Made by a program: the position numbers and the translations under genes
Shown here: positions 11,231 to 63,147 of the stretch, one piece after another
Position numbering within the stretch: the first letter of the stretch is position 1
How the letters are laid out: each line of letters starts with the position of its first letter
Notes under the pieces: model-generated
The model's input: only the letters and a program-made list of their open reading frames with translations
Database searches by the model: none
Told to the model about the DNA's origin: nothing
NCBI GenBank assembly: GCA_020061465.1
Contig: JAGUYG010000064.1
Span: forward strand, 1 to 64,000
Reading direction: 5' to 3'
DNA: 64,000 nt
DNA from: Ignavibacteriales bacterium
GTDB lineage: Bacteria; Bacteroidota; Ignavibacteria; Ignavibacteriales; Ignavibacteriaceae

Positions 11231-12748
11231 CTAATGTTTAAAGTGTCTGATTCCAGTAAATATCATTGAAATATTAAATTTATCGGCAGCTTCTATAACC
11301 TCTGCATCACGGACAGAGCCGCCGGGCTGAATTACTGCCTGAGCGCCGCACTCAATTATTTTTATTAGACCATCGGCAAAAGGGAAAAATGCATCCGATG
11401 CAGCCGCCGAGCCTTTTAAATCGAGACCATGTTCTTCAGCTTTCATTGCGGCTATTTTTACCGAATCAATACGCGACATTTGACCGGCTCCTACTCCCAA
11501 TGTAGCTTTCTCTTTAGCAAACACAATGGCGTTCGATTTAGTGTATTTAGCAACTTTCCATGCAAAGATTAAATCTTCAAGTTCTGTTTCGCTTGGTTTT
11601 TTATTGGTAATAAATTTCAATGCATCATGGTCCAAAATAGTTTTGTCATAGTCTTGCGCAATTATTCCGCCGGGAATATTTCTAAACGAAAGTTTTTCGG
11701 ATGAAATTTGTTTTAGCTGTTTTAGTAATCTTCTGTCCTTTTTTTTCTTAAGAATATTTAAAGCATCCTCAGTGAAATCCGGCGCACAAATAATTTCAAG
11801 AAAAATTTCATTAAGCTTTTCTGCTAAAGCTGCATCTACCGCAGAAGCGAAGGCGACGATGCCGCCAAATGCGGAAACCGGATCGCATTTAAGTGCCTTG
11901 CTGTAAGCATCGAATGAGCTTTTTCCCACAGCAGCTCCGGCAGGATTACTATGTTTAATTATCGCGCAGGAATTTTTTCCTAATTCTTCAATTAATTCCA
12001 CAGCGGCTGTTAAATCGAGTATATTATTATACGATAATTCTTTCCCATGGAAAAATTCGAAGTAACTCTCAAAATTACCATAGATAGCAGCTTTTTGATG
12101 GGGATTCTCTCCGTATCTTAAAACTTTTTCCTTTGGTAAATTAATTCTGATTGACGATTGCGGCAATTGAAATTTCTCTTCGAAGAAATTAGCAATGTAA
12201 GTATCGTAATGTGAAGTGTGAGAGAAGGCTTCTACTGCAAGCTTGCGCCGGGTTGATAAGCTAACCTCACCGGTTTTTAATCCACCAATAAAATAGGAAT
12301 ACTGCTCATGATTCGTAAGAACAGAAACGAATTTATGATTCTTTGCTGCAGCACGGATTAAACTAGGACCGCCTATATCGATGTTTTCAATTATATCGTT
12401 GAGCGTCGATTCGGGATTTTCGGCTGTTTTAATAAACGGATATAGATTTACGCAAACAACATCAATCGGTTCAATTGCATTTTCTTCTGCTTCCTTAATG
12501 TCAGCATCATTATCACGACGCAATAAAATTCCTCCAAAGATTTTTGGATGCAAAGTTTTTACACGTCCTTCTAAAATTTCAGCAAATCCTGTTATGCTGC
12601 TAATTTCTGTTACGTCAATATTTGCTTCCTTCAAAATCCGCGACGTGTTTCCCGTTGCAATTATTTTATAATTCAGTTTTTCCAATGCAGCCGCAAGCTC
12701 GACGATGGAAGTTTTATCCGATACACTTAAGAGGGCTAATTTTTTCAA
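11231..12748 (-). CDS. purH: Bifunctional AICAR transformylase / IMP cyclohydrolase
   Basis: Catalyses the last two steps of IMP synthesis. At 505 aa it has an N-terminal MGS-like cyclohydrolase domain (start KKLALLSVSDKTSIVELA, then TGNTSRIL, TLHPKIFGGIL). The C-terminal transformylase domain has the Lys-His catalytic motif in AIIKHSNPAGAAVG and ends with the expected QPGGSVRDAEVI and MIFTGIRHFKH. It lies 120 nt downstream of purN and 7 nt upstream of mreB. Confidence 0.97.
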   Translation of the reverse strand: MKKLALLSVSDKTSIVELAAALEKLNYKIIATGNTSRILKEANIDVTEISSITGFAEILEGRVKTLHPKIFGGILLRRDNDADIKEAEENAIEPIDVVCVNLYPFIKTAENPESTLNDIIENIDIGGPSLIRAAAKNHKFVSVLTNHEQYSYFIGGLKTGEVSLSTRRKLAVEAFSHTSHYDTYIANFFEEKFQLPQSSIRINLPKEKVLRYGENPHQKAAIYGNFESYFEFFHGKELSYNNILDLTAAVELIEELGKNSCAIIKHSNPAGAAVGKSSFDAYSKALKCDPVSAFGGIVAFASAVDAALAEKLNEIFLEIICAPDFTEDALNILKKKKDRRLLKQLKQISSEKLSFRNIPGGIIAQDYDKTILDHDALKFITNKKPSETELEDLIFAWKVAKYTKSNAIVFAKEKATLGVGAGQMSRIDSVKIAAMKAEEHGLDLKGSAAASDAFFPFADGLIKIIECGAQAVIQPGGSVRDAEVIEAADKFNISMIFTGIRHFKH

Positions 12749-12868
12749 TTTATAAATCCGCTGTTTAATCTTCGAGATGTAAATTATAAGTTATTTAATT
12801 TATAAAAACATATAAGGTAACAAACTTAGTTGATGGTTAAAAAAATTTATTAGTTTTCAATTAAATAC

Positions 12869-13474
12869 TCACTCATCAACAAAAATTCTTGTGCCTGAAA
12901 AGCGTACTTTTTTCTCCGCAATTTTTTTTATCACATAGGGAAGAAGCTCATGTTCTATCTCAAGCACTCTAACTGCAATTTCTTCGGGTGATTTTATATC
13001 CGAAATATCAACACATCTTTGAGCAATAATTTTACCGGTATCGTAAGTACTATCCACGAAGTGAACAGTTGCTCCCGATATTTTTGCCGATGAATTGAAC
13101 ACGGCATTATGAACGTTCATACCATACATTCCTTTTCCTCCAAATGAAGGTAAGAGCGCAGGGTGTATGTTAATAATTTTCCAGTTAGCCGAGTTAACAA
13201 TTTTTGAGGGAATCAATTTTAGATAACCGGCAAGAACAATCAGCTCGACTTGCTTATCTAGCAGCAACTGATATACTTCATCATACGAAATTGTAGCGTG
13301 TGCATTGCCAATACTGAACGTTTGAATTAAAAATTCATCAGCAATTTTAAACGCCGGACAATTTTCTTTATTACTAAAAACGGCTTTTACTTCAATTAAT
13401 CCATGAAGTGATTCGTCAGTCAGCACAGCTTTTAAATTGGAGCCTCTCCCCGAAACAAATACTGCAACGTTCAA
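12869..13474 (-). CDS. purN: Phosphoribosylglycinamide formyltransferase (GART)
   Basis: Formyl-THF-dependent step 3 of purine synthesis. 201 aa with N-terminal VAVFVSGRGSNLKAVL and the catalytic block IINIHPALLPSFGGKGMYG (the Asn-x-His pair). The downstream SGATVHFVDSTYDTGKIIAQ contains the catalytic Asp. It lies upstream of purH in the same direction. The 120-nt gap between them is AT-rich and could hold a promoter, which I cannot locate. Confidence 0.95.
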   Translation of the reverse strand: MNVAVFVSGRGSNLKAVLTDESLHGLIEVKAVFSNKENCPAFKIADEFLIQTFSIGNAHATISYDEVYQLLLDKQVELIVLAGYLKLIPSKIVNSANWKIINIHPALLPSFGGKGMYGMNVHNAVFNSSAKISGATVHFVDSTYDTGKIIAQRCVDISDIKSPEEIAVRVLEIEHELLPYVIKKIAEKKVRFSGTRIFVDE

Positions 13475-52641: not shown

Positions 52642-55600
52642 TTATAATACTGTATTTTCAACCCTGTCATAATGCTTATCTATTTCTCTTTGTAATTCAA
52701 TTGTTTTTGACAGTGCGTTTATCATTTTAAAATAAGTATATATCTCATCTGAAGTAAGAATTCTACCTCTCCTTTCTTTAAGCCACTTTTCACATACCTG
52801 ATAACCGCCTATTCGATAATTCCAAGCTTCTTCATTTACATCATCGAAGAATTGGTCATCGTTTATATAAATACGCCCTAAAAGTTGAAAAGATACGTTC
52901 TTTGTCTCTTGAAAAACAAATTTCGGTTTTTCTACTTTATTGTTTCCTTCAACGGGAAATTTAGGAATTTTGTTGATTAGAGATTGATGCTTTAATAAGT
53001 GTAAATCGACAAGCTGCTCACCGATATCAGCCAACTTAATGAAAAGATTGAAATTTTTAGTAAAAGGAATTCTTGGAAAATCAATCCTCAAAAAATTTGC
53101 ATATCTTTTTCTGTAAACGCTGCTGTAAAGAATAGCGTAGATGTAATAAAATATTTTTTTGGCGCTAAATTCTTTTAGCGACTCACTTTGTTTATCCTGA
53201 GGGTAGAGAAAGTTGGCTTTGTATGAAGTGCTTAATTCCTCAATTAGAGTATTATTTATATTCGGGATAATTAATCCATAAGTTTCTCCAGGTTCAAAGA
53301 TCATAAGTTGAATTAAGGATTTTTTCCTTTTCCCGGTTTTTTGAGGGTACAGATATAGTGGTGCAAGATAGCAGGTCGTTTTACTCGATAAACAGCCATG
53401 TTCGATAATTTTGTCGGTAATCATAAAATGAGAGTAAGGTATTTGAATCTCTTCACGCTTATGAAATATCAAGCCTAAGTTCTCATTCAAAATGTGTTGC
53501 ATTACTTCTTTACGAGTTCTTTCAATCATATCATCATGGTAAAAAATCCACCTTTCATCAAAAGGACGGTAAAGAATTTTTGTAATCGAATCTTTCCAGT
53601 CCAAACCTTTTCTAAGCTTTTCTCTTTGCTCCTTAATTTTCCAGCTCTGATTTTCGCTTAAACCATAAGTTTGTTTAAGGATTTCATCATCAATTTTGGG
53701 ATCCAGAAACTGCTTTACTCTTTGCTCTAGTTTTTTTTTGTCGAAATCAATAACAAAACCATCTCTTGCTGTCACTATCCCAACGCTGTTCACCGGAAAT
53801 ATTTCCGTAATCTTGTGAAATGAATAATAATGATTTGCCAGCTTATTATCGGTTGGAATGAATAGATAAAATTCCGGATGTGGAACAGCTTTTTTCCATT
53901 TCACAGTGTTGATATTATTTTTCAGAAGCCATTTGGATTTCTTTTCCCTTAATCCAAAAATCTCAGAGTGAAATACTTTATTCGTTTTATGCTTGAGCTT
54001 GTATTTAATAAAGAAAGCAATTGCTACGCCTTGTTGAATATCGAATACATTTTCATCTTTACTTCCGTCCGGAGCTTTTTCTTTTTTTAAGCTGTTACCA
54101 TGTAAATCGAGAACATAAATCTCATCAAAGCTGTTAATAAGAGATTGACGCATACCTCTGAAAGTCGGATTATCGAGATAGCTGTGGTTGGTAATAAAAC
54201 CCAATACACCTTCGCCAGCCTGGTCAATTTTCCATTGCGCGAAACGAATGAATTTAACATAATCATCTTGAAGCCATTTGGGATTTTTTTCACCCAGTGG
54301 TTTACCGTCAACTTTGTAGTATTCTCTAATTTCTTCGGATATCCATTCCCCTATATTTGAAGAGTGCCCGGAGTAAGGTGGATTACCGAGTATTACGAGA
54401 ATCGGCACATCTTTTTTTACTTTTCCGGCTTCATGGCTTTCTGCGGAAAGTGAGGACATTCCAGGAAATCTCGATTCCTCTAATTCTTTCATTTCCAGTG
54501 TATTTGTTAAATAGTATTTAATACGCTCGTCATCTTCCATTTTGTAACCAAGCTCTTCCAGAAGAAAAGACAACTTCATATGTCCGATGGCATAAGGTGC
54601 CATCATAAGCTCGAAAGCATAAAAATTTTCCAGAATCCGCTCTTTAACAAATGGTTTGACAAAACCTTTTCCAAATCTCTCCGTTATTTCTTCGATTGTT
54701 ATTTCGATTGCTTTTGCAAGGAACCCAAGAGTTCCGCCGGCTGGATCGAGAAGCGTGACGTTTTTTGATGCTAAACCATCTGAGATTTTAAATTTTTCTT
54801 TTAGTATTTGATGAAGAGAACGTACGATGAATGAAACCACAGGTTCCGGTGTATAATACACCCCTCGTTTTTCCCGGGTTTCGGGATCATAAACAGAAAG
54901 AAATGTTTCATAAAAATGTAAAACCGGATCGGCGCCTTTTCCCTCGTGATAATATTGATCTAAGATTTTTTTTGCATCGGCAGCGGAAAGCACTTCGGCA
55001 ATGTCATCAATTATTATTTCCATCTGGAGAGGCAAATCTTCCATTGATATAAATTTAAAAATGTCTCTCAGAATTCCAATAGACTTGGGAATGAATGAAT
55101 AAGCAAGTTTCCTGTTAAACTCAGTTTCGGCACGAAGACGAGCGGCAAATAAACCATAGGTTATGGTTTGGGAATAAATATCCGCAAATTCATCCTCACT
55201 TATTCCGGCAATTAAGAATTCTTTAAAAGCTTCATAAAATCCTTGAATTGATTTCGTCCCGGATTTAAGTTCTTCACTTACGATTTCATCTTTTAGGAAC
55301 TTTGTTCTCTTAGCAAGTTCAATAGCTAATGTTCTTGCGGTATAAGTTTTGGGGAGTGAGAAATCCAAAAACCGCTCGAACAATTCAAACAATTTATCTT
55401 CATTCTCAACCACCGGGAGTGTCGAAAGTTTTTTAATAACAAAAGGACGAGCAATGGATACACTTTCAATCCTTTCACCGTTTCTAAATAAACGGAATTC
55501 CGTGAAGTTTGTTAAAATCACATTGGGGAATGTAGCCAAATACCTTTCGAGCTGTTCGCTGTCTTCAATTCTGTTCAGGTCTGCGCCTAAATCCTTAGCT

Positions 55601-55818
55601 TCGATGTAACCGATAATTTTTTGCTTTCCGTCCCAAATTCTAAAATCAGGATTTCCGGCTTCTGTTTTTTTAGGCAGAATGGTTATATCGATTTTCTTTT
55701 TTCTTTGTAACTCAGAAAATAAAGAAATAAAATCAGCGAGATGTTTATAATAAGATTCCTCCCTCGCATCGCCCTTCTTATAGGTGTTGAAGAGATTTGA
55801 TAAGAATTGGTTAGTCAT
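52642..55818 (-). CDS. Single-chain restriction-modification enzyme (type IIG/ISP-like N6-adenine methyltransferase-nuclease)
   Basis: 1058 aa. The N-terminal PD-(D/E)XK nuclease has D58 (NPDFRIWDG) and E73-A-K75 (GYIEAK). A helical linker follows. The methyltransferase has the YYTPEPVVSFIV entry motif, SAM motif I LLDPAGGTLGFL (about 354-365) and catalytic NPPY in ILGNPPYSGH (about 477). The C-terminal part (about 650-1058) should hold target recognition, with a conserved-looking end GGYQVCEKWLKERRGR. No helicase is present, unlike true type ISP enzymes. It is flanked by unrelated housekeeping genes and stands alone as a defence gene. Confidence 0.88.
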   Translation of the reverse strand: MTNQFLSNLFNTYKKGDAREESYYKHLADFISLFSELQRKKKIDITILPKKTEAGNPDFRIWDGKQKIIGYIEAKDLGADLNRIEDSEQLERYLATFPNVILTNFTEFRLFRNGERIESVSIARPFVIKKLSTLPVVENEDKLFELFERFLDFSLPKTYTARTLAIELAKRTKFLKDEIVSEELKSGTKSIQGFYEAFKEFLIAGISEDEFADIYSQTITYGLFAARLRAETEFNRKLAYSFIPKSIGILRDIFKFISMEDLPLQMEIIIDDIAEVLSAADAKKILDQYYHEGKGADPVLHFYETFLSVYDPETREKRGVYYTPEPVVSFIVRSLHQILKEKFKISDGLASKNVTLLDPAGGTLGFLAKAIEITIEEITERFGKGFVKPFVKERILENFYAFELMMAPYAIGHMKLSFLLEELGYKMEDDERIKYYLTNTLEMKELEESRFPGMSSLSAESHEAGKVKKDVPILVILGNPPYSGHSSNIGEWISEEIREYYKVDGKPLGEKNPKWLQDDYVKFIRFAQWKIDQAGEGVLGFITNHSYLDNPTFRGMRQSLINSFDEIYVLDLHGNSLKKEKAPDGSKDENVFDIQQGVAIAFFIKYKLKHKTNKVFHSEIFGLREKKSKWLLKNNINTVKWKKAVPHPEFYLFIPTDNKLANHYYSFHKITEIFPVNSVGIVTARDGFVIDFDKKKLEQRVKQFLDPKIDDEILKQTYGLSENQSWKIKEQREKLRKGLDWKDSITKILYRPFDERWIFYHDDMIERTRKEVMQHILNENLGLIFHKREEIQIPYSHFMITDKIIEHGCLSSKTTCYLAPLYLYPQKTGKRKKSLIQLMIFEPGETYGLIIPNINNTLIEELSTSYKANFLYPQDKQSESLKEFSAKKIFYYIYAILYSSVYRKRYANFLRIDFPRIPFTKNFNLFIKLADIGEQLVDLHLLKHQSLINKIPKFPVEGNNKVEKPKFVFQETKNVSFQLLGRIYINDDQFFDDVNEEAWNYRIGGYQVCEKWLKERRGRILTSDEIYTYFKMINALSKTIELQREIDKHYDRVENTVL

Positions 55819-55945: not shown

Positions 55946-56542
55946 TCACAACTCAATCCTCCCGGAAACTGCTCTGCCGATAGTTGCTTCATCGGCAAAC
56001 TCTAAATCTCCTCCTATCGGAAGTCCACGGGCAATACGGGTAACTTTAATTCCCAATGGCTTTATCAGCTTAGCCAGATATAAGGCAGTCGTTTCTCCTT
56101 CAGTATCAGGGTTCAGGGCTAAAATAATTTCTTTTATATTCTCGCTTTCAAAACGTTTTAATAATTCTTTTATTTTGAGTGTGTCGGGTCCTATCCCGGA
56201 TAGGGGTGACAATACTCCGCCTATCACATGATAAATTCCGTAATACTCATTCGACTTTTCGATAGCTATTACATCGCTTGCTTCCTCTACTACGCAAATT
56301 ACCGAGTCGTCTCTTTTTGCGCTTTGGCAAATAGGACAAAGCTCCTCTTCCGAAATATTAAAGCAGCGAGCGCATAACCTTAATTTAGTTTTTAATTCAT
56401 GCAGTGCTTTAAGTAGATTTGCTACGTTTTCATTTTCGCCTTTGAGCAAAAAAAGCGCTAAACGCTGCGCAGTTTTCTTTCCGATCCCCGGCAGCTTGCT
56501 AAGCTCTTCGATAGCCGCTTGTAATGGTTCTGCTAATTGCAA
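55946..56542 (-). CDS. recR: Recombination mediator protein RecR
   Basis: 198 aa. A helix-hairpin-helix (LSKLPGIGKKTAQRLALFLL), a four-cysteine zinc site (C-x2-C ... C-x2-C in LCARCFNISEEELCPIC) and a Toprim domain (VVEEASDVIAIEKS, ALNPDTEGETTALYLAK) are all present. RecR loads RecA at gaps with RecF and RecO. It starts 2 nt after the ybaB stop, the usual pairing. Confidence 0.97.
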   Translation of the reverse strand: MQLAEPLQAAIEELSKLPGIGKKTAQRLALFLLKGENENVANLLKALHELKTKLRLCARCFNISEEELCPICQSAKRDDSVICVVEEASDVIAIEKSNEYYGIYHVIGGVLSPLSGIGPDTLKIKELLKRFESENIKEIILALNPDTEGETTALYLAKLIKPLGIKVTRIARGLPIGGDLEFADEATIGRAVSGRIEL

Positions 56543-56544
56543 TT

Positions 56545-56871
56545 TTACATCCCCGGCAAATTTAATCCAGGCGGCAGCATACCCTGAGTGACTTTCGCCA
56601 TTTCTTCTTCAGCCATTTTCTTAGCCGAATTTAAGGCTTTGTTTACTGCGGCAACAATTAAATCTTCCAAAATTTCTTTTTCTTCCGGTTTTATTACTTC
56701 TTGGTCTATCTCGATGGATACAATTTCTTGATTTCCGTTAGAGGTTGCTTTTACCATCCCCCCGCCTGCTTCTTCACTTACAGTCAAATTACCTAATTCA
56801 CTCTGAATCTTCTGTATTTCAGCTTGCATTTTTTGAACCTGTTTCAACATTCCCTGCATTCCGCCTTTCAT
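56545..56871 (-). CDS. YbaB/EbfC nucleoid-associated protein
   Basis: 108 aa. KQVQKMQAEIQKIQSELGNL is the N-terminal helix. Then GGGMVKATSNGNQEIVSIEID and the LVAAVNKALNSAKKMAEEEM helix, all characteristic of YbaB. It binds DNA as a dimer. The C-terminal GMLPPGLNLPGM tail is common. Directly upstream of recR as in many bacteria. Confidence 0.95.
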   Translation of the reverse strand: MKGGMQGMLKQVQKMQAEIQKIQSELGNLTVSEEAGGGMVKATSNGNQEIVSIEIDQEVIKPEEKEILEDLIVAAVNKALNSAKKMAEEEMAKVTQGMLPPGLNLPGM

Positions 56872-57182
56872 TAAAATCCTCCTAATTCGTCTATTTTTTG
56901 AATATTTTGATTAAAAAGTGTTTCAACCCTTCTTTGACATAAATGAAGAAATACGTCGATTATTTGATAAAACCCTTTTTTGTCAATTGTTTCTTACTCA
57001 ATGCACAATAAAGATTTAGTTTATTTTTCTTCAGTATTCCAACTTTTATCAACATATTTCCCTAAAAGTTCTAATAATGTTGTTAAAGCCGGGTTAATTT
57101 CGCTGCAAATATAGCATAATGAATTGACTTTATACACCCAATTTTCATAATTTCCAACCCGAAATAAATCAATCAGAGTGTC
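56872..57182. other. Divergent intergenic region
   Basis: 311 nt between ybaB (-) and the PurC-like gene (+). It must hold promoters for both directions. It is AT-rich. I see no hairpin, RNA or clear operator, and no purine-riboswitch-like element could be recognised by eye. Confidence 0.45.
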
Positions 57183-57893
57183 TTGATAAACAATTCAATT
57201 ACAAATAAGACCAATAACGAAGAGGCTTCAAAACAAGGGCTTTCTATTGACAGTTTGGATTTCCATATTGTGGAATACCCCGACTTTTTTGTAGATAACA
57301 GCTCTAAAAAGATAAAATGTAAGAACTTAGGTGAAAAATTCGCATCCATTAATTCGTTCTTTTTAGATTATTTGAAAGAATACCACATTCCCACCGGGTA
57401 TGTTAAGCTGCATTCAAAAAATTCAATGAAATACATCCGGCATACCTTGCTTCCATTTTCTGTGAAAATACTCAACACGGCTGATAAAAGAATTTCAAAG
57501 CTGTTTAATTTGAAAGAAGGCGACCAACTAAACCTGCCTATTTTCGAATATCACATCGGTGATTCAAAAGATTCGTTGGTCTCGGAAAGCCACTTAATAG
57601 CCTTTAATTTTTGTATCCTGGATGATTTGAAAATTATGAACCGCATTTGTTCAAAAGTGAATGCAGTTTTAAGATCCTTCTTCGAAAGAAGAAATGAAGT
57701 TTTGGCAGAAGTTAACTGTATTTTTGGTAAGAGTAATGATAAGCTATACTTGATTGATGATTTCACACCCCGAAGCTTAAAACTATTTCCTGCCAACGGC
57801 GAGCTTAACAAACGGGTTAATCCATATAAGATAAAAACTGCTTCCGATGTGAAGAACTATACCGATTACCTTCACAAATTGATGATCGCCTAA
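57183..57893 (+). CDS. Degenerate PurC-fold protein (SAICAR synthetase-like pseudoenzyme)
   Basis: 236 aa, TTG start (weak ribosome site, so uncertain). Residues about 45-235 align with PurC by eye: HIPTGYVKL with PurC GIPT, LLPFSVKILN with VPxEVVVRN, LFNLKEGDQLNLPIFEYHI with LGIxEGxEL-PxxEF, DSLVSESHL with DPxxxExH, and YLIDDFTPRSLKLF with LxDExSPDxxRLW. The key positions differ. The N-terminal GKAK loop is absent, the VVRN Arg and AGS Ser are lost, DFKLEFG reads EVNCIFG, and the SPD Asp reads Arg. It therefore should not make SAICAR. It heads an operon with psd, pssA, purS and purQ. Confidence 0.75.
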   Translation: MINNSITNKTNNEEASKQGLSIDSLDFHIVEYPDFFVDNSSKKIKCKNLGEKFASINSFFLDYLKEYHIPTGYVKLHSKNSMKYIRHTLLPFSVKILNTADKRISKLFNLKEGDQLNLPIFEYHIGDSKDSLVSESHLIAFNFCILDDLKIMNRICSKVNAVLRSFFERRNEVLAEVNCIFGKSNDKLYLIDDFTPRSLKLFPANGELNKRVNPYKIKTASDVKNYTDYLHKLMIA

Positions 57894-57897
57894 GGCA

Positions 57898-58548
57898 ATG
57901 TTCACAAGATACGGATATCTAACAATTGGGATTATCGCCGGAATTTCTTTCATCTTAATTTCATCCAGTTTTTTTGTTCAAAACAATTTGGCAAAATGGC
58001 TGCTAATACTATTACCGATATTATTTCTCATCTTTACCCTAAATTTCTTTCGCGACCCTGATCGTACTGCCCCTACTACAGAAAAAGTAGTTGTTTCACC
58101 TGCTGACGGCAAAGTTCTTTTAGTTAAAGATGTAGAGGACAACAAATATATAAACGGAGCCGCCAGGCAGATTTCAATTTTTATGTCTCCGCTTAATGTT
58201 CATGTTAATAGAATTCCTGTAAGCGGAATGGTCGAATATGTAAAATACTATCGCGGGAAATATATTGCGGCGTTTGAAGATAAAGCATCCGATATGAACG
58301 AGAGGGCGGAATTTGGAATAAACGGCGAATATGGAAAAGTATTTTTTACACAAGTAGCCGGCTTTGTAGCCCGAAGAATCGTGTATGAAATTAAACCAGG
58401 AGATGAAGTAAAAATCGGGGAGAGATTCGGTATGATAAAATTCGGCAGCAGGGTTGATGTTGTAGTACCAGCGGAATGGCAGCCGAAAGTAAATGTGGGG
58501 GAAAGAGTCACCGCAGGTGAATCAATCTTATTTGAATTAAAGAATTAA
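57898..58548 (+). CDS. psd: Phosphatidylserine decarboxylase (short, archaeal-type form)
   Basis: 216 aa. Two N-terminal membrane segments (about 7-27, 33-49), then NFFRDPDRTAP, VSPADGKVLLV, the Asp-His type SPLNVHVNRIPVSG motif and the self-cleavage site F-G-S184 in GMIKFGSRVDVVVP, where Ser184 becomes the pyruvoyl cofactor. It makes phosphatidylethanolamine from phosphatidylserine. It lies 4 nt after the PurC-like gene and 3 nt before pssA, its partner enzyme. Confidence 0.95.
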   Translation: MFTRYGYLTIGIIAGISFILISSSFFVQNNLAKWLLILLPILFLIFTLNFFRDPDRTAPTTEKVVVSPADGKVLLVKDVEDNKYINGAARQISIFMSPLNVHVNRIPVSGMVEYVKYYRGKYIAAFEDKASDMNERAEFGINGEYGKVFFTQVAGFVARRIVYEIKPGDEVKIGERFGMIKFGSRVDVVVPAEWQPKVNVGERVTAGESILFELKN

Positions 58549-58551
58549 TAA

Positions 58552-59280
58552 ATGAATCAACTCAGAATTACTCCTTCCATCATTCCAAACTTATTCACTG
58601 CAATGAATATGTTTGCGGGATTTTTATCAATCATTAGTGCAAGCCAGGGTAAATTAATTTATGCCGCTTGGCTTATTATAATTGCGGCTATATTCGATAT
58701 GTTAGACGGATTGTTAGCACGATTGACAAAATCAAGCAGCCAATTGGGGGTTCAATTAGATTCGCTGTCCGATATTGTAAGCTTCGGTGCAGCTCCGGCT
58801 TTTTTGATTTACCAGGCTCACTTACATTCATTAGACGCAATCGGAATAATACTCAGCTCTGCTTTAATGATTGCAGGCGGATTTAGGCTTGCAAGGTTCA
58901 ACGTACAATTAGTAGGATTCGATAAAGAATATTTTGTGGGATTACCGATTCCTTCTTCGGCAATTACAATAGCTGCCTTTATGCTTACTTATTATGAACC
59001 GGAAATCGGATTTGAAGCACCGTATTCGTACTTTGTTCTTCCTATGGTTCTAATTCTGTCATTATTGATGGTCAGCCGGATTAAGTACGATACAATCCCA
59101 AAAATTTCTAAGCAATCGCTTAAAGAAAAACCTTTGCCGATTATTTTTTTAGTTCTATCTGTTATCCTTCTAATCATCACGGCAGGTAAAGCTTTGTTTT
59201 ATATTTTTGTTTTCATCATACTCTTTGGTATTTTGAGATACATTTTCAATATGTTCAAAAATGTAAAAGTGAAATCTTAA
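58552..59280 (+). CDS. pssA: CDP-diacylglycerol-serine O-phosphatidyltransferase
   Basis: 242-aa integral membrane CDP-alcohol phosphatidyltransferase. The signature D-x2-D-G-x2-A-R-x8-G-x3-D-x3-D is complete (FDMLDGLLARL ... GVQLDSLSDIVSFG, about 43-70). It makes phosphatidylserine, the substrate of Psd encoded just upstream. The N-terminal ITPSIIPNLFTAMNMFAGF is typical of this subclass. Six or more membrane helices are expected. Confidence 0.95.
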   Translation: MNQLRITPSIIPNLFTAMNMFAGFLSIISASQGKLIYAAWLIIIAAIFDMLDGLLARLTKSSSQLGVQLDSLSDIVSFGAAPAFLIYQAHLHSLDAIGIILSSALMIAGGFRLARFNVQLVGFDKEYFVGLPIPSSAITIAAFMLTYYEPEIGFEAPYSYFVLPMVLILSLLMVSRIKYDTIPKISKQSLKEKPLPIIFLVLSVILLIITAGKALFYIFVFIILFGILRYIFNMFKNVKVKS

Positions 59281-59314
59281 AAATTATTTTTCTAACCACT
59301 TCGGGGAACATAAA

Positions 59315-59566
59315 TTGTTTAAAGCAAAAGTTTTAATTAAGAGAAGACTTTCTATTTTAGACCCGCAAGGACAGGCTGTTGAAAAAGGTGCTATACATCT
59401 CGGACTGAATAATATTAAAGAAACAAGAATCGGGAAGTACATTGAATTTCTGGTAGAGCTTGATGACGAAACTAAAGCCAGTACAGAAGTAGATGAGTAC
59501 TGCCGCAAGCTGCTGGCTAATCCAATAATTGAAGATTACGAATTTCATCTGGAAAAAATATCATGA
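59315..59566 (+). CDS. purS: Phosphoribosylformylglycinamidine synthase subunit PurS
   Basis: 83 aa. [21 protein letters not shown], then [23 protein letters not shown] and [15 protein letters not shown] are the standard PurS pattern. PurS bridges PurL and PurQ in the FGAM synthase complex. TTG start. It overlaps purQ by 4 nt (ATGA), so subunits are co-translated. purL is not in the window. Confidence 0.95.
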
Positions 59567-60261
59567 AGCTTAAGTTCGGAGTTGTTGTTTTTCCCGGTTC
59601 AAATTGTGACCATGATGCTTATTACTCTCTAAGAAAAATTTTAGATCAAGACGTAAAATTTTTATGGCATAAAGATAACGATCTTCAAAACTGCGATGTT
59701 ATCATATTGCCCGGCGGCTTTTCATACGGAGATTATTTGAGGAGCGGTGCAATCGCACGATTCTCCCCTATTATAAATTCGGTGATAGATTTTGCGGAAC
59801 GCGGCGGTTACGTAATAGGAATATGCAACGGATTTCAAATCTTGCTTGAAGCCGGTTTGCTCCCGGGTGTTATGCTGAAAAATAATTCCCTTCAATTTAT
59901 ATGCAGAGATATTTATCTTTCGATCGAAAATTATAACACAATATTTACTAATAATATTGAAACAAGTAAGCCGCTGAAAATGCCGATAGCTCATGGCGAA
60001 GGAAATTATTATACCGATGAAAATACTTTGACGAGTCTTATTGAAAATAATCAAATTGTGTTTAAGTATTCTTCAAATGATGGTAAAGTTGAAGACCTTT
60101 TCAATCCAAACGGCTCATTACTTAATATTGCAGGTATAATAAACAAACGAGGCAACGTTTTGGGAATGATGCCCCATCCGGAGCGGGCGTGCGATTCGGT
60201 ACTAGGTAAAACCGATGGACGTTTGATCTTTAATTCATTGATTCAAAATATAAATAACTAA
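59563..60261 (+). CDS. purQ: Phosphoribosylformylglycinamidine synthase subunit PurQ (glutaminase)
   Basis: 232-aa class I glutamine amidotransferase that supplies ammonia for FGAM synthesis. Nucleophile C88 in [14 protein letters not shown]. The His-Glu pair is in [10 protein letters not shown]. The HGEGNYYTD motif is also typical. Partner of PurS (overlapping gene). Its presence next to a catalytically eroded PurC-like gene recalls the purCSQ order common in other bacteria. Confidence 0.96.
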
Positions 60262-60272
60262 TAGGTGACAGA

Positions 60273-60473
60273 ATGTTTGGTAATCTTGGCGCAGGCGAAA
60301 TAATTCTGATTCTTCTCGTAATTTTAATTTTATTCGGCGCAAAAAAAATTCCCGAATTAGCTCAAGGACTCGGAAAGGGAATGAGAGAATTCAAGAAATC
60401 CTTAAAGGAAGTTGAAGAGGATATTAAAGTTTCGGAACAGGAAGAATCCAAAAAAAATAATAAGAACGCTTAG
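60273..60473 (+). CDS. tatA: Sec-independent translocase subunit TatA/E
   Basis: 66 aa. Short N-terminal membrane helix ([17 protein letters not shown]), the hinge [15 protein letters not shown] with the Phe-Gly just before it, an amphipathic helix and a charged tail. Single Tat pore-forming subunit; tatC is not here. It follows purQ by 11 nt. Confidence 0.93.
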
Positions 60474-60566
60474 ATTGTTAGAATTTTTATTCGAAAAATT
60501 TACTTCCGGTAAGCAAATCAATTATCAAGCGCATATTTTGTTTAACTCAATTTCTTAGGTGATTAC

Positions 60567-62021
60567 TTGCTGCCTTACACTCCGTATTCTGAAATCTTAG
60601 AAAAAATAAAATCGGGGGAAGTCTCACTCGTTGCCCGTGTAGAAAATTTTTTAGAAAGAATCGAAAAGAAAAAACACTTAAATGCATTCAATTTCATTTT
60701 CGAAGATGCAATTGAAAAAGCAAGAGAGATAGAAGCAAAAATTCATTCCGGTTCAGCAGGGAAGCTTGCTGGAATGGTGATTGCGGTTAAAGATGTACTT
60801 TCTGTTAAAGACAAACCTACAACCTGTTCATCAAATATACTTAAGAATTTTAAAGCGATTTACACAACTACAGCAGTTAAGAAATTAATTGAAGAAGACG
60901 CAATAATAATCGGGAAAACCAACTGCGATGAATTCGCCATGGGTTCTTCAAATGAAAATTCTGCTTTCGGTCCGGTATTAAATCCACACGATAATACCCG
61001 GGTTCCCGGCGGTTCAAGCGGTGGTTCTGCAGTTGCGGTGGCAGCCGGTTTGTGCGATGCTTCTTTAGGTACCGATACCGGCGGTTCGATACGGCAGCCG
61101 GCAGCTTTTTGCGGAGTACTCGGACTTAAACCAACATACGGAAGAGTTTCAAGATACGGCTTAACGGCTTTTGCTTCTTCTTTTGATTCTATCGGTCCAT
61201 TTGCAAATACTATTGAGGATATAGCCTCTGTGCTCGAAGTTATTTCAGGACATGATGAGAATGACTCAACCTCTTCACGATTGCCGGTTCCAAAATTTTC
61301 GGAAGAATTAACATTTCCGAAGGATCGTTCCAAAAGCTCAGAAAACATGAAAATTGGAATTGCAGAAGAATATTTCGGCGAGGGCTTAAAGGCTGAAATA
61401 AAAGACAACATAAACCAAATTATTAATTGGCTGAAGAATAATGAATTTCAGATTGTTCCGATTCATCTGCCGCACAATGAATATACTATTGCTGCTTATT
61501 ACGTATTAACTACTGCAGAAGCTTCATCAAACCTTGCAAGGTATGATGGAACCAGATACGGATTTCGTGCACCGGAAGCATCCTCCTTAATCGATATGTA
61601 TAAATCTTCAAGATCACAGGCATTCGGCAGCGAAGTAAAAAGAAGAATTATGCTCGGTACCTATGTACTCTCTTCCGGATATTATGATGCATACTACCGC
61701 AAAGCTCAAAAAGTAAGACGGTTTATCAAAGAAGATTTTGACAAAGCTTTTAATGAAGTTGACGTAATATTAACACCAACATCGCCAACTACCGCCTTCA
61801 AAATTGATGAAAAATCAAGCGACCCGCTGCAGATGTATTTAAGCGATATTTATACAACTTCAGCTAACCTTGCAGGTATTCCGGGAATCAATATTCCAAT
61901 AGGTAAAGACAGCAGTGGTTTACCAGTAGGAATGCAATTGTTAGCAAATCAATTTGAGGAAGAAAAACTGCTTAGGGTTAGTGCATTTATTCAGAATAAT
62001 TATCTCAGAAGCTTGAAGTAG
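60567..62021 (+). CDS. gatA: Glutamyl-tRNA(Gln) amidotransferase subunit A
   Basis: 484-aa amidase that feeds ammonia to GatB for Gln-tRNA (or Asn-tRNA) formation. The catalytic triad is complete: K75 (VAVKDV), S150 (PGGSSGG) and S174 (TGGSIRQPA), with the usual spacing. TTG start. A short insert F250-P-K-D-R-S-K-S-S-E lies in the variable linker before MKIGIAEEYFG. It is encoded by the same repeat that interrupts the phosphatase at 23150. gatB and gatC are elsewhere. Confidence 0.96.
   Translation: MLPYTPYSEILEKIKSGEVSLVARVENFLERIEKKKHLNAFNFIFEDAIEKAREIEAKIHSGSAGKLAGMVIAVKDVLSVKDKPTTCSSNILKNFKAIYTTTAVKKLIEEDAIIIGKTNCDEFAMGSSNENSAFGPVLNPHDNTRVPGGSSGGSAVAVAAGLCDASLGTDTGGSIRQPAAFCGVLGLKPTYGRVSRYGLTAFASSFDSIGPFANTIEDIASVLEVISGHDENDSTSSRLPVPKFSEELTFPKDRSKSSENMKIGIAEEYFGEGLKAEIKDNINQIINWLKNNEFQIVPIHLPHNEYTIAAYYVLTTAEASSNLARYDGTRYGFRAPEASSLIDMYKSSRSQAFGSEVKRRIMLGTYVLSSGYYDAYYRKAQKVRRFIKEDFDKAFNEVDVILTPTSPTTAFKIDEKSSDPLQMYLSDIYTTSANLAGIPGINIPIGKDSSGLPVGMQLLANQFEEEKLLRVSAFIQNNYLRSLK
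61314..61342. repeat. Palindromic repeat element inserted in gatA
   Basis: 29-nt tract with core TTTCCGAAGGATCGTTCC, 25/29 identical to 23852-23880. It is in the same reading frame in both genes and falls in a surface linker of GatA. Confidence 0.7.
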
Positions 62022-62130: not shown

Positions 62131-63147
62131 ATGAGCATTCTTGTCGATAAAAAAACTAAACTTGTAGTTCAAGGCATCACTGGAGGAGAAGGATCTTTCC
62201 ACACACAACAAATGATTGAATACGGAACGAAGGTAGTAGCCGGAGTAACGCCCGGCAAAGGTGGTACCGAGTTTTTAAGCGTGCCGGTCTTTAATACTGT
62301 AGACGAAGCAGTTAAGCAAACAAAGGCTGATACTTCGGCAATATTCGTCCCGCCGGCGTTTGCCGCTGATGCAATTCTTGAGGCAGTCGATGCAGGTATA
62401 AAAGTTATCGTATGCATAACCGAAGGAATTCCTGCTGCAGACATGGTAAAAGTTTATAATGTAATAAAAAATAAAGGCGTGGTTTTGGTTGGACCTAATT
62501 GCCCCGGGGTTATTTCACCTGGAAAAGCTAAGGTTGGAATCATGCCTGGCTTTATTCATAAGAGAGGAACAATTGGAGTAGTTTCAAGAAGCGGAACACT
62601 TACTTATGAAGCGGTGAAGCAGCTTACCGATGTTGACCTTGGACAATCCACCTGTGTCGGAATAGGTGGAGACCCGGTTATCGGATCAAGATTCATCGAC
62701 GTTATCAAATTGTTTAACGAGGACGAAAATACCAAAGGAATAGTAATGATTGGAGAGATAGGCGGAACGGCGGAAGAAGAAGCCGCCGCCTATGTAAAAA
62801 AATATGTTAAGAAGCCTGTTGTCGGTTTCATAGCAGGTAGAACAGCACCTCCCGGACGCAGAATGGGTCACGCCGGTGCAATTATTTCAGGAGGTAAAGG
62901 CACGGCAGCAGAGAAAATGGACGCGATGAAAAAAGCTGGAATTAAAGTGATTGAAAGTCCTGCTGAAATTGGAACAACTATGTTAAAAGCTCTTGATAGA
63001 TTTAAGAAAAGAACAGCTAAGAAAAGGAAAGTTAAAGCTTCGTTAGAAGTAAAGAAAAGTTTAAAGAAAAAAGCTGCAGCAGCTTCAAAAGCAAAAAGCA
63101 AGGCTGCTGTTAAGAGTAAATCAAAACAGAAAAAATCGAAACGATAA
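62131..63147 (+). CDS. sucD: Succinate-CoA ligase alpha subunit with lysine-rich C-terminal tail
   Basis: 338 aa. The normal enzyme (about 1-290) is complete: CoA-binding [39 protein letters not shown], and the phospho-histidine segment [19 protein letters not shown]. It makes ATP or GTP from succinyl-CoA in the TCA cycle with SucC, not in the window. Residues about 291-338 are an added tail of 48 residues with 20 Lys and 3 Arg plus many Ala/Ser, like a histone H1 or AlgP tail. That tail is not part of the known fold. ATG start; the gap upstream is 109 nt. Confidence 0.93.

What the first reader, a model, noticed from the sequence alone, without database searches (positions are those of the whole stretch)
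57183..57893. PurC-fold pseudoenzyme heading a phospholipid and purine operon
The protein aligns along most of SAICAR synthetase but has lost the N-terminal GKAK loop, the VVRN Arg, the AGS Ser, the Lys and Glu of DFKLEFG and the Asp of SPD. It is not broken: it is intact over 236 codons and tightly spaced with psd. Since purS and purQ lie a few genes on, it may descend from a real purC in a purCSQ cluster and have taken a new, non-catalytic role, perhaps regulatory or linked to phospholipid synthesis.
Basis: partly seen in the sequence, partly recalled or inferred. Interest (0 to 1): 0.75.

Follow-up and report, generated by a model that had tools for sequence, protein, structure and literature searches.

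The report
Retired purine enzyme in phospholipid operon
A gene descended from a purine-making enzyme (PurC) has lost its catalytic residues but is still preserved by selection beside two phospholipid-making genes, even in bacteria that have lost purine synthesis genes, so it probably has a second, non-catalytic job tied to membrane lipid synthesis.

Summary
The 236-codon ORF at 57183-57893 is a short-type SAICAR synthetase (PurC) fold (AlphaFold pLDDT 89; best PDB match Z 25.6) that has lost nearly all catalytic residues. The genome has a separate, complete long-type purC. The gene is no local accident: in Ignavibacteriales it sits directly before psd in every genome found to carry it, under purifying selection as strong as psd's (median dN/dS 0.088 against 0.090). 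In other phyla (LCP-89, Tariuqbacter) the same slot before psd holds a fully catalytic PurC; Calditrichota, KSB1 and deep Ignavibacteria hold graded intermediates. Two Ignavibacteriales genomes that lack purine-synthesis genes (PurC, PurS, PurD, PurE) still keep it, so its job is probably not purine synthesis. The gene is lost or hyper-diverged in several lineages. In most of these the gating loop of the neighbouring phosphatidylserine synthase (PssA G122) has changed; one recent loss has not. I propose a PurC-derived non-catalytic partner of PssA/Psd. Ancestry, loss of catalytic residues and selection are shown; the partner role is inferred. I found no description of it in the literature held.

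The parts
57183..57893 (+). PurC-fold pseudoenzyme (first gene of the operon)
   Evidence: Pfam SAICAR_synt 67.7 bits; AlphaFold pLDDT 89, best PDB match PurC 3nua Z 25.6; 2 of 15 catalytic residues kept
57474..57491 (+). codons 98-103, N-T-A-D-K-R: replaces the R-N-x-x-A-G-S motif of PurC; N98 invariant, K102/R103 conserved in 37 and 40 of 45 Ignavibacteriales members
57898..58548 (+). psd, phosphatidylserine decarboxylase, 4 nt after the pseudoenzyme stop
   Evidence: spacing median 3 nt in 50 relatives
58552..59280 (+). pssA, CDP-diacylglycerol-serine O-phosphatidyltransferase
   Evidence: TIGR00473 133 bits over its cut-off of 107
58906..58935 (+). PssA codons 119-128 (QLVGFDKEYF), loop aligned with the cytoplasmic helix 4-beta1 gating loop of M. 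jannaschii PSS; G122 and F123 covary with presence of the pseudoenzyme
59315..59566 (+). purS
59563..60261 (+). purQ
56872..57182 (.). divergent intergenic region between ybaB and the pseudoenzyme; should hold the operon promoter (inferred). Consensus hits are not clearly above chance (19 found in 56800-60600, shuffles 14.0, sd 3.6)
56545..56871 (-). ybaB/ebfC, divergent conserved neighbour
55946..56542 (-). recR, divergent conserved neighbour (named from its sequence)
   Evidence: ORF; conserved neighbour

Best explanation
The gene is the descendant of a catalytic short-type PurC that headed a purC-psd-pssA-purS-purQ operon. After the lineage came to use a second, long-type PurC encoded elsewhere, the operon copy was freed from catalysis; its active site was rebuilt, but the fold was kept because the protein had, or acquired, a non-catalytic role with the phospholipid enzymes next to it. 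Most likely it is a soluble accessory protein that binds phosphatidylserine synthase (PssA) on its cytoplasmic face, near the helix 4-beta1 loop that gates the serine site, and stabilises or regulates it, thereby setting phosphatidylserine and phosphatidylethanolamine supply. Shown here: homology, predicted fold, operon position, loss of catalytic residues, the second PurC, purifying selection, retention without purine genes. Inferred: absence of activity, contact with PssA, sign and trigger of regulation.
For: Fold and ancestry; tree with the Ignavibacteriales clade at 100/99 and the second PurCs included in one long-type clade at 100/100. Intact operon PurCs with 15 of 15 residues in LCP-89 and others, graded intermediates elsewhere, same slot. 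Genomes with an intact operon PurC mostly have no other PurC (1 of 7 do), those with an eroded one mostly do (17 of 22; Fisher p 0.006, phylogeny not corrected). Selection: median NG86 dN/dS 0.088 against psd 0.090, pssA 0.080, purQ 0.054, recR 0.049. Position: directly before psd in all 32 relatives first examined and in 29 of 30 further f1 genomes, usually -1 to +7 nt from the psd start. Independence from purines: G027 (99% complete) lacks PurC, PurS, PurH, PurD and PurE, and G023 (96%) lacks PurC, PurS, PurD and PurE, yet both keep the gene with psd-pssA. PssA link: 20 of 242 PssA columns separate family f2 (gene lost) from f1/f3, against 2/216 psd, 1/232 purQ, 0/198 recR, 3/108 ybaB. PssA G122 changed 4 times on the tree, each time in a lineage where the gene is lost or hyper-diverged. 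In genomes fetched afterwards, 28 of 28 with a well-conserved gene keep G122, and the 10 f2 genomes and one hyper-diverged case do not. The loop aligns with the MjPSS loop holding Val110, which enters the citrate site next to the serine site (PMC8633023). Partial rate correlation was highest with PssA, 0.47.
Against: The gene is dispensable: absent in all f2 genomes examined, in genus g8 and in G119, with psd and pssA kept. G119 lost it without a change in the PssA loop. Independent losses are too few for significance (2 of 2 or 3 of 3 informative pairs, sign test p 0.5 and 0.25). G122 was picked after looking at 242 columns, and f2 is one clade. The rate correlation with PurQ (0.43) is nearly as high as with PssA (0.47), and with Psd lower (0.23), in the better-controlled set. 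No physical interaction was tested; only single-chain prediction is on offer.
Confidence: 0.45

Rival explanations
1. It is an enzyme with new chemistry: the old CAIR/ATP pocket was rebuilt (R->L97, G->K102, S->R103, D->E176, R->K200) to bind another, probably anionic, ligand, perhaps a phospholipid precursor.
For: Residues that replace the catalytic ones are themselves conserved: L 37/45, K 37/45, R 40/45, E 43/45, K 40/45 and P 41/45, which decay alone would not give.
Against: In diverged members (L111, L114, L115, L122) several of these positions vary too; no recognisable Mg/ATP-binding set is left.
Confidence: 0.17
2. It is a regulatory partner of the true long-type PurC or of other purine enzymes (heteromeric activator).
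For: Operon with purS and purQ; it shares its fold with PurC.
Against: Kept in G027 and G023, which lack PurC and most tested purine genes; the true PurC is of a distant type.
Confidence: 0.06
3. It works as a ligand sensor that tells phospholipid synthesis about purine nucleotide or AICAR/SAICAR status, without catalysis.
For: PurC fold and an operon that joins purine and phospholipid genes; ligand sensing is a common fate of retired enzymes (general knowledge).
Against: The residues that bind CAIR and ATP are gone; genomes without purine synthesis genes keep it.
Confidence: 0.12
4. It is a decaying relic kept only because translation of psd is coupled to it.
For: Graded erosion, faster divergence than psd (mean distance 1.13 against 0.55), very tight spacing to psd, and repeated clean losses.
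Against: dN/dS of 0.09, like psd's; invariant N98, R154, K158, N160 and R169; intact ORF in dozens of genomes; f2 keeps psd without it.
Confidence: 0.1
5. It still makes SAICAR at a low rate as a backup for the long-type PurC.
For: Fold and family match.
Against: Catalytic Lys, Arg, Ser, Glu and Asp replaced; kept in genomes without the pathway; a full purC is present.
Confidence: 0.03

Closest known systems
SAICAR synthetase PurC, short bacterial type (PDB 3nua, 2gqr, 2ywv)
   Same: Whole fold (Z about 25, rmsd 2.4 over 212 residues), structural residues N98, R154, K158, N160 and the EFG-like F181-G182
   Different: Catalytic Lys, Arg, Ser, Asp and Glu replaced; N-terminal GKAK strand missing; not the genome's only PurC; tied to psd-pssA
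Catalytic PurC in the same operon slot in LCP-89 and Tariuqbacter (L119-L121, L124, L138)
   Same: Position before psd-pssA, short type, 25 to 30% identity
   Different: All 15 catalytic residues kept and, apart from one further weak hit (91 bits) in the L120 genome, no other PurC found in these genomes
Long-type PurC (yeast/Mycobacterium type; here G000:C27)
   Same: Same superfamily fold (Z about 18 for solved members)
   Different: About 300 aa, motifs present, encoded elsewhere, separate clade at 100/100
Enzyme-derived non-catalytic partners such as HisZ of HisG and the AdoMetDC prozyme (from general knowledge, not tested here)
   Same: Retired paralogue retained as a partner or regulator
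   Different: Those regulate an enzyme of their own pathway; here the proposed partner belongs to another pathway

Membership tests
SAICAR synthetase (PurC) fold superfamily | Pfam PF01259 above its gathering score | tested here: met
   67.7 bits, cut-off 20
SAICAR synthetase (PurC) fold superfamily | PurC fold | tested here: met
   AlphaFold pLDDT 89, pTM 0.84; Foldseek and VIA best matches all PurC, Z 25.6
Functional SAICAR synthetase (EC 6.3.2.6) | Curated equivalog cut-off TIGR00081 | tested here: not met
   39.2 bits against 189.9
Functional SAICAR synthetase (EC 6.3.2.6) | Catalytic and substrate-binding residues | tested here: not met
   2 of 15 kept in the window protein, 0 to 5 in 45 relatives
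Functional SAICAR synthetase (EC 6.3.2.6) | SAICAR synthetase activity | not testable with these tools
   needs an assay or complementation
Pseudoenzyme (homologue of an enzyme without catalytic residues, kept by selection) | Catalytic residues lost, ORF intact, purifying selection | tested here: met
Pseudoenzyme (homologue of an enzyme without catalytic residues, kept by selection) | No catalysis | not testable with these tools
   inferred from residues only
Partner of phosphatidylserine synthase | Physical contact with or effect on PssA | not testable with these tools
   only correlated changes seen

The most novel reading that the evidence does not exclude
A purine-biosynthetic enzyme has been converted, stepwise and over several phyla, into a dedicated non-catalytic subunit that controls the serine gate of phosphatidylserine synthase, with living intermediates of every stage at one operon slot.
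Probability: 0.28. Interest if true: 0.8.

Novelty: new variant of a known kind. Interest (0 to 1): 0.6.

Why it matters
Pseudoenzymes are common, but a series with an intact, a half-eroded and a fully retired enzyme at the same operon position, together with genomes that lost the parent pathway and kept the retired protein, is a rare natural experiment on how a catalyst becomes something else. It also points to an unrecognised, testable factor in bacterial phosphatidylethanolamine synthesis and warns that these genes, which pass the Pfam cut-off, can be annotated as purC by mistake, hiding probable purine auxotrophy as in G027.

Tried and rejected
A regular-expression search for the true PurCs found none because the long type has another motif spelling; a profile was used instead. 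Mirror-tree distances favour PssA but do not separate it from PurQ; kept only as weak support. Families in which PF01259 found no second copy first looked like losses; the family HMM showed that G002, G006, G009, G031 and G034 keep a hyper-diverged copy in the same place. Apparent odd identities for L068 were an artefact of a second spurious HMM domain. Papers: no hit for SAICAR synthetase with pseudoenzyme, and nothing relevant on purC with psd or on PurC paralogues without catalytic residues; only open-licence papers are held. Promoter scan not clearly above chance.

Full report
WHAT IS THERE. The ORF at 57183-57893 (+) is intact, 236 codons from a TTG, and its stop lies 4 nt before the ATG of psd. 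It is the first gene of a run psd, pssA, purS, purQ, all confirmed by profiles, and it faces the divergent pair ybaB-recR. Pfam finds SAICAR synthetase with 67.7 bits, but the curated PurC equivalog model scores 39 against a cut-off of 190. The best solved relatives are all short-type PurCs. The genome holds one other PurC, complete, at G000:C27:31005-31742, with 249 bits. Its sequence shows the standard motifs of the long, yeast-like type.

FOLD. AlphaFold2 on a 74-row alignment of window and locus proteins gave pLDDT 89 and pTM 0.84; only residues 1-23 are poor. Foldseek and VIA-align give only PurC and PAICS above the background: 3nua Z 25.6, rmsd 2.4 over 212 residues; long-type PurCs near Z 18; the next fold Z 6.9. 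The fold is PurC, minus the N-terminal GKAK strand.

ACTIVE SITE. Of 15 catalytic or substrate-binding positions scored, the window protein keeps 2 and 45 Ignavibacteriales members keep 0 to 5, while operon PurCs of LCP-89, Tariuqbacter and some unnamed MAGs keep 15 of 15. Structural residues N98, R154, K158, N160 and R169 stay invariant. Several replaced catalytic sites carry a new conserved residue (L97, K102, R103, E176, K200), which speaks for a new function rather than decay, though the most diverged members vary there. Which PurC positions are catalytic rests on established knowledge of the family.

CONSERVATION AND POSITION. Among 59 relatives most genomes of families f1 and f3 have a second, weak PF01259 hit; f2 has none. 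In 32 of 32 fetched loci it lies directly before psd-pssA, usually with ybaB-recR on the other side, and the loci from a scan of GTDB contigs repeat this. The window belongs to the Ignavibacteriales (judged from record titles of its nearest relatives). The gap to psd has a median of 3 nt in 50 relatives. The family HMM recovers hyper-diverged copies in five genomes where Pfam saw none; true absence is found in f2, genus g8 and G119.

SELECTION. Pairwise NG86 dN/dS has a median of 0.088 for the gene, 0.090 for psd, 0.080 for pssA, 0.054 for purQ and 0.049 for recR. Some pairs are near-duplicates of one genome from two collections and dS is high in others, so only the comparison between genes is used. 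The protein is constrained, not drifting.

ORIGIN. In LCP-89, Tariuqbacter, Delongbacteria, KSB1, Calditrichota and deep Ignavibacteria the same slot before psd-pssA (mostly followed by purS-purQ) holds a short-type PurC at stages from intact to eroded. A tree puts all Ignavibacteriales copies in one clade (100/99), the second PurCs included in one long-type clade (100/100), and the operon copies between them; the long branch to the long type makes the exact rooting unsure. A second PurC is present in 1 of 7 genomes with an intact operon copy and in 17 of 22 with an eroded one (p 0.006 without correction for kinship; MAGs may be incomplete, one 91-bit extra hit in G064 was not counted, and in some genomes the second copy was not typed). 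The simplest history is replacement of function by the long type, then release of the operon copy.

NOT PURINES. G027 (99% complete) has no PurC (other than this gene), PurS, PurH, PurD or PurE hit over cut-off, and G023 (96%) none of PurC, PurS, PurD, PurE; both keep the gene beside psd-pssA. This separates the gene from the purine pathway and leaves the phospholipid genes as its constant neighbours.

LINK TO PssA. Comparing genomes with and without the gene, 20 of 242 PssA columns separate f2 from f1/f3, against 2 of 216 in Psd and 4 of 538 in PurQ, RecR and YbaB together. PssA evolves somewhat faster than these, which explains part of this. The clearest cluster is loop 119-128, QLVGFDKxYF before GLPIP: G122 is kept in all rows with a normally conserved gene and is D, N or E in f2, in g8 and in three of five hyper-diverged copies. 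In genomes fetched afterwards the rule held in 28 of 28 with a normal gene, 10 of 10 f2 genomes without it, and one hyper-diverged case; the exception is G119, a clean loss within genus g29 with the loop unchanged. On the tree G122 changed 4 times, always in such lines, but independent pairs are too few for a test to reach significance. In M. [quoted passage not shown] PMC8633023), so a soluble protein could reach it; the match of the two loops rests on a sequence alignment with a gap there. Partial rate correlations also rank PssA first, though PurQ is close.

VERDICT. The evidence is strong for a conserved PurC-derived pseudoenzyme family that heads the psd-pssA operon and persists without purine synthesis; moderate for neofunctionalisation; suggestive only for PssA as the partner. 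I found no description of such a family in the literature held.

Noticed in passing
window 52642-55818 (-): 1058-aa single-chain type ISP restriction-modification-like protein (Type_ISP_C 289 bits, N6_Mtase) next to recR-ybaB; this neighbour was not examined in relatives.
   Followed up: partly
window 62131-63147 (+): Succinyl-CoA ligase alpha subunit (SucD) with a lysine/alanine-rich C-terminal tail of about 45 residues after the conserved domains.
   Followed up: no
L062 and L122 (G027), L052 and L109 (G023): Two Ignavibacteriales lineages appear to have lost de novo purine synthesis (PurC, PurS, PurD and PurE absent; G023 keeps a divergent PurH); their only PF01259 hit is the pseudoenzyme, so automatic annotation could wrongly report a purC.
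   Followed up: partly
G073 (L129): A genome with an intact operon PurC (15 of 15 residues) and a second PurC of 256 bits, perhaps the state just before erosion begins.
   Followed up: no
G064:C41:8442-9137: A weak extra PF01259 hit (91 bits, 357-aa frame) in an LCP-89 genome that also has an intact operon PurC; type not determined.
   Followed up: no
window 11231-13474 (-): purH, with a probable purN (phosphoribosylglycinamide formyltransferase-like ORF) behind it, lie in the same window about 45 kb away from purS-purQ; purine genes are scattered in this genome.
   Followed up: no
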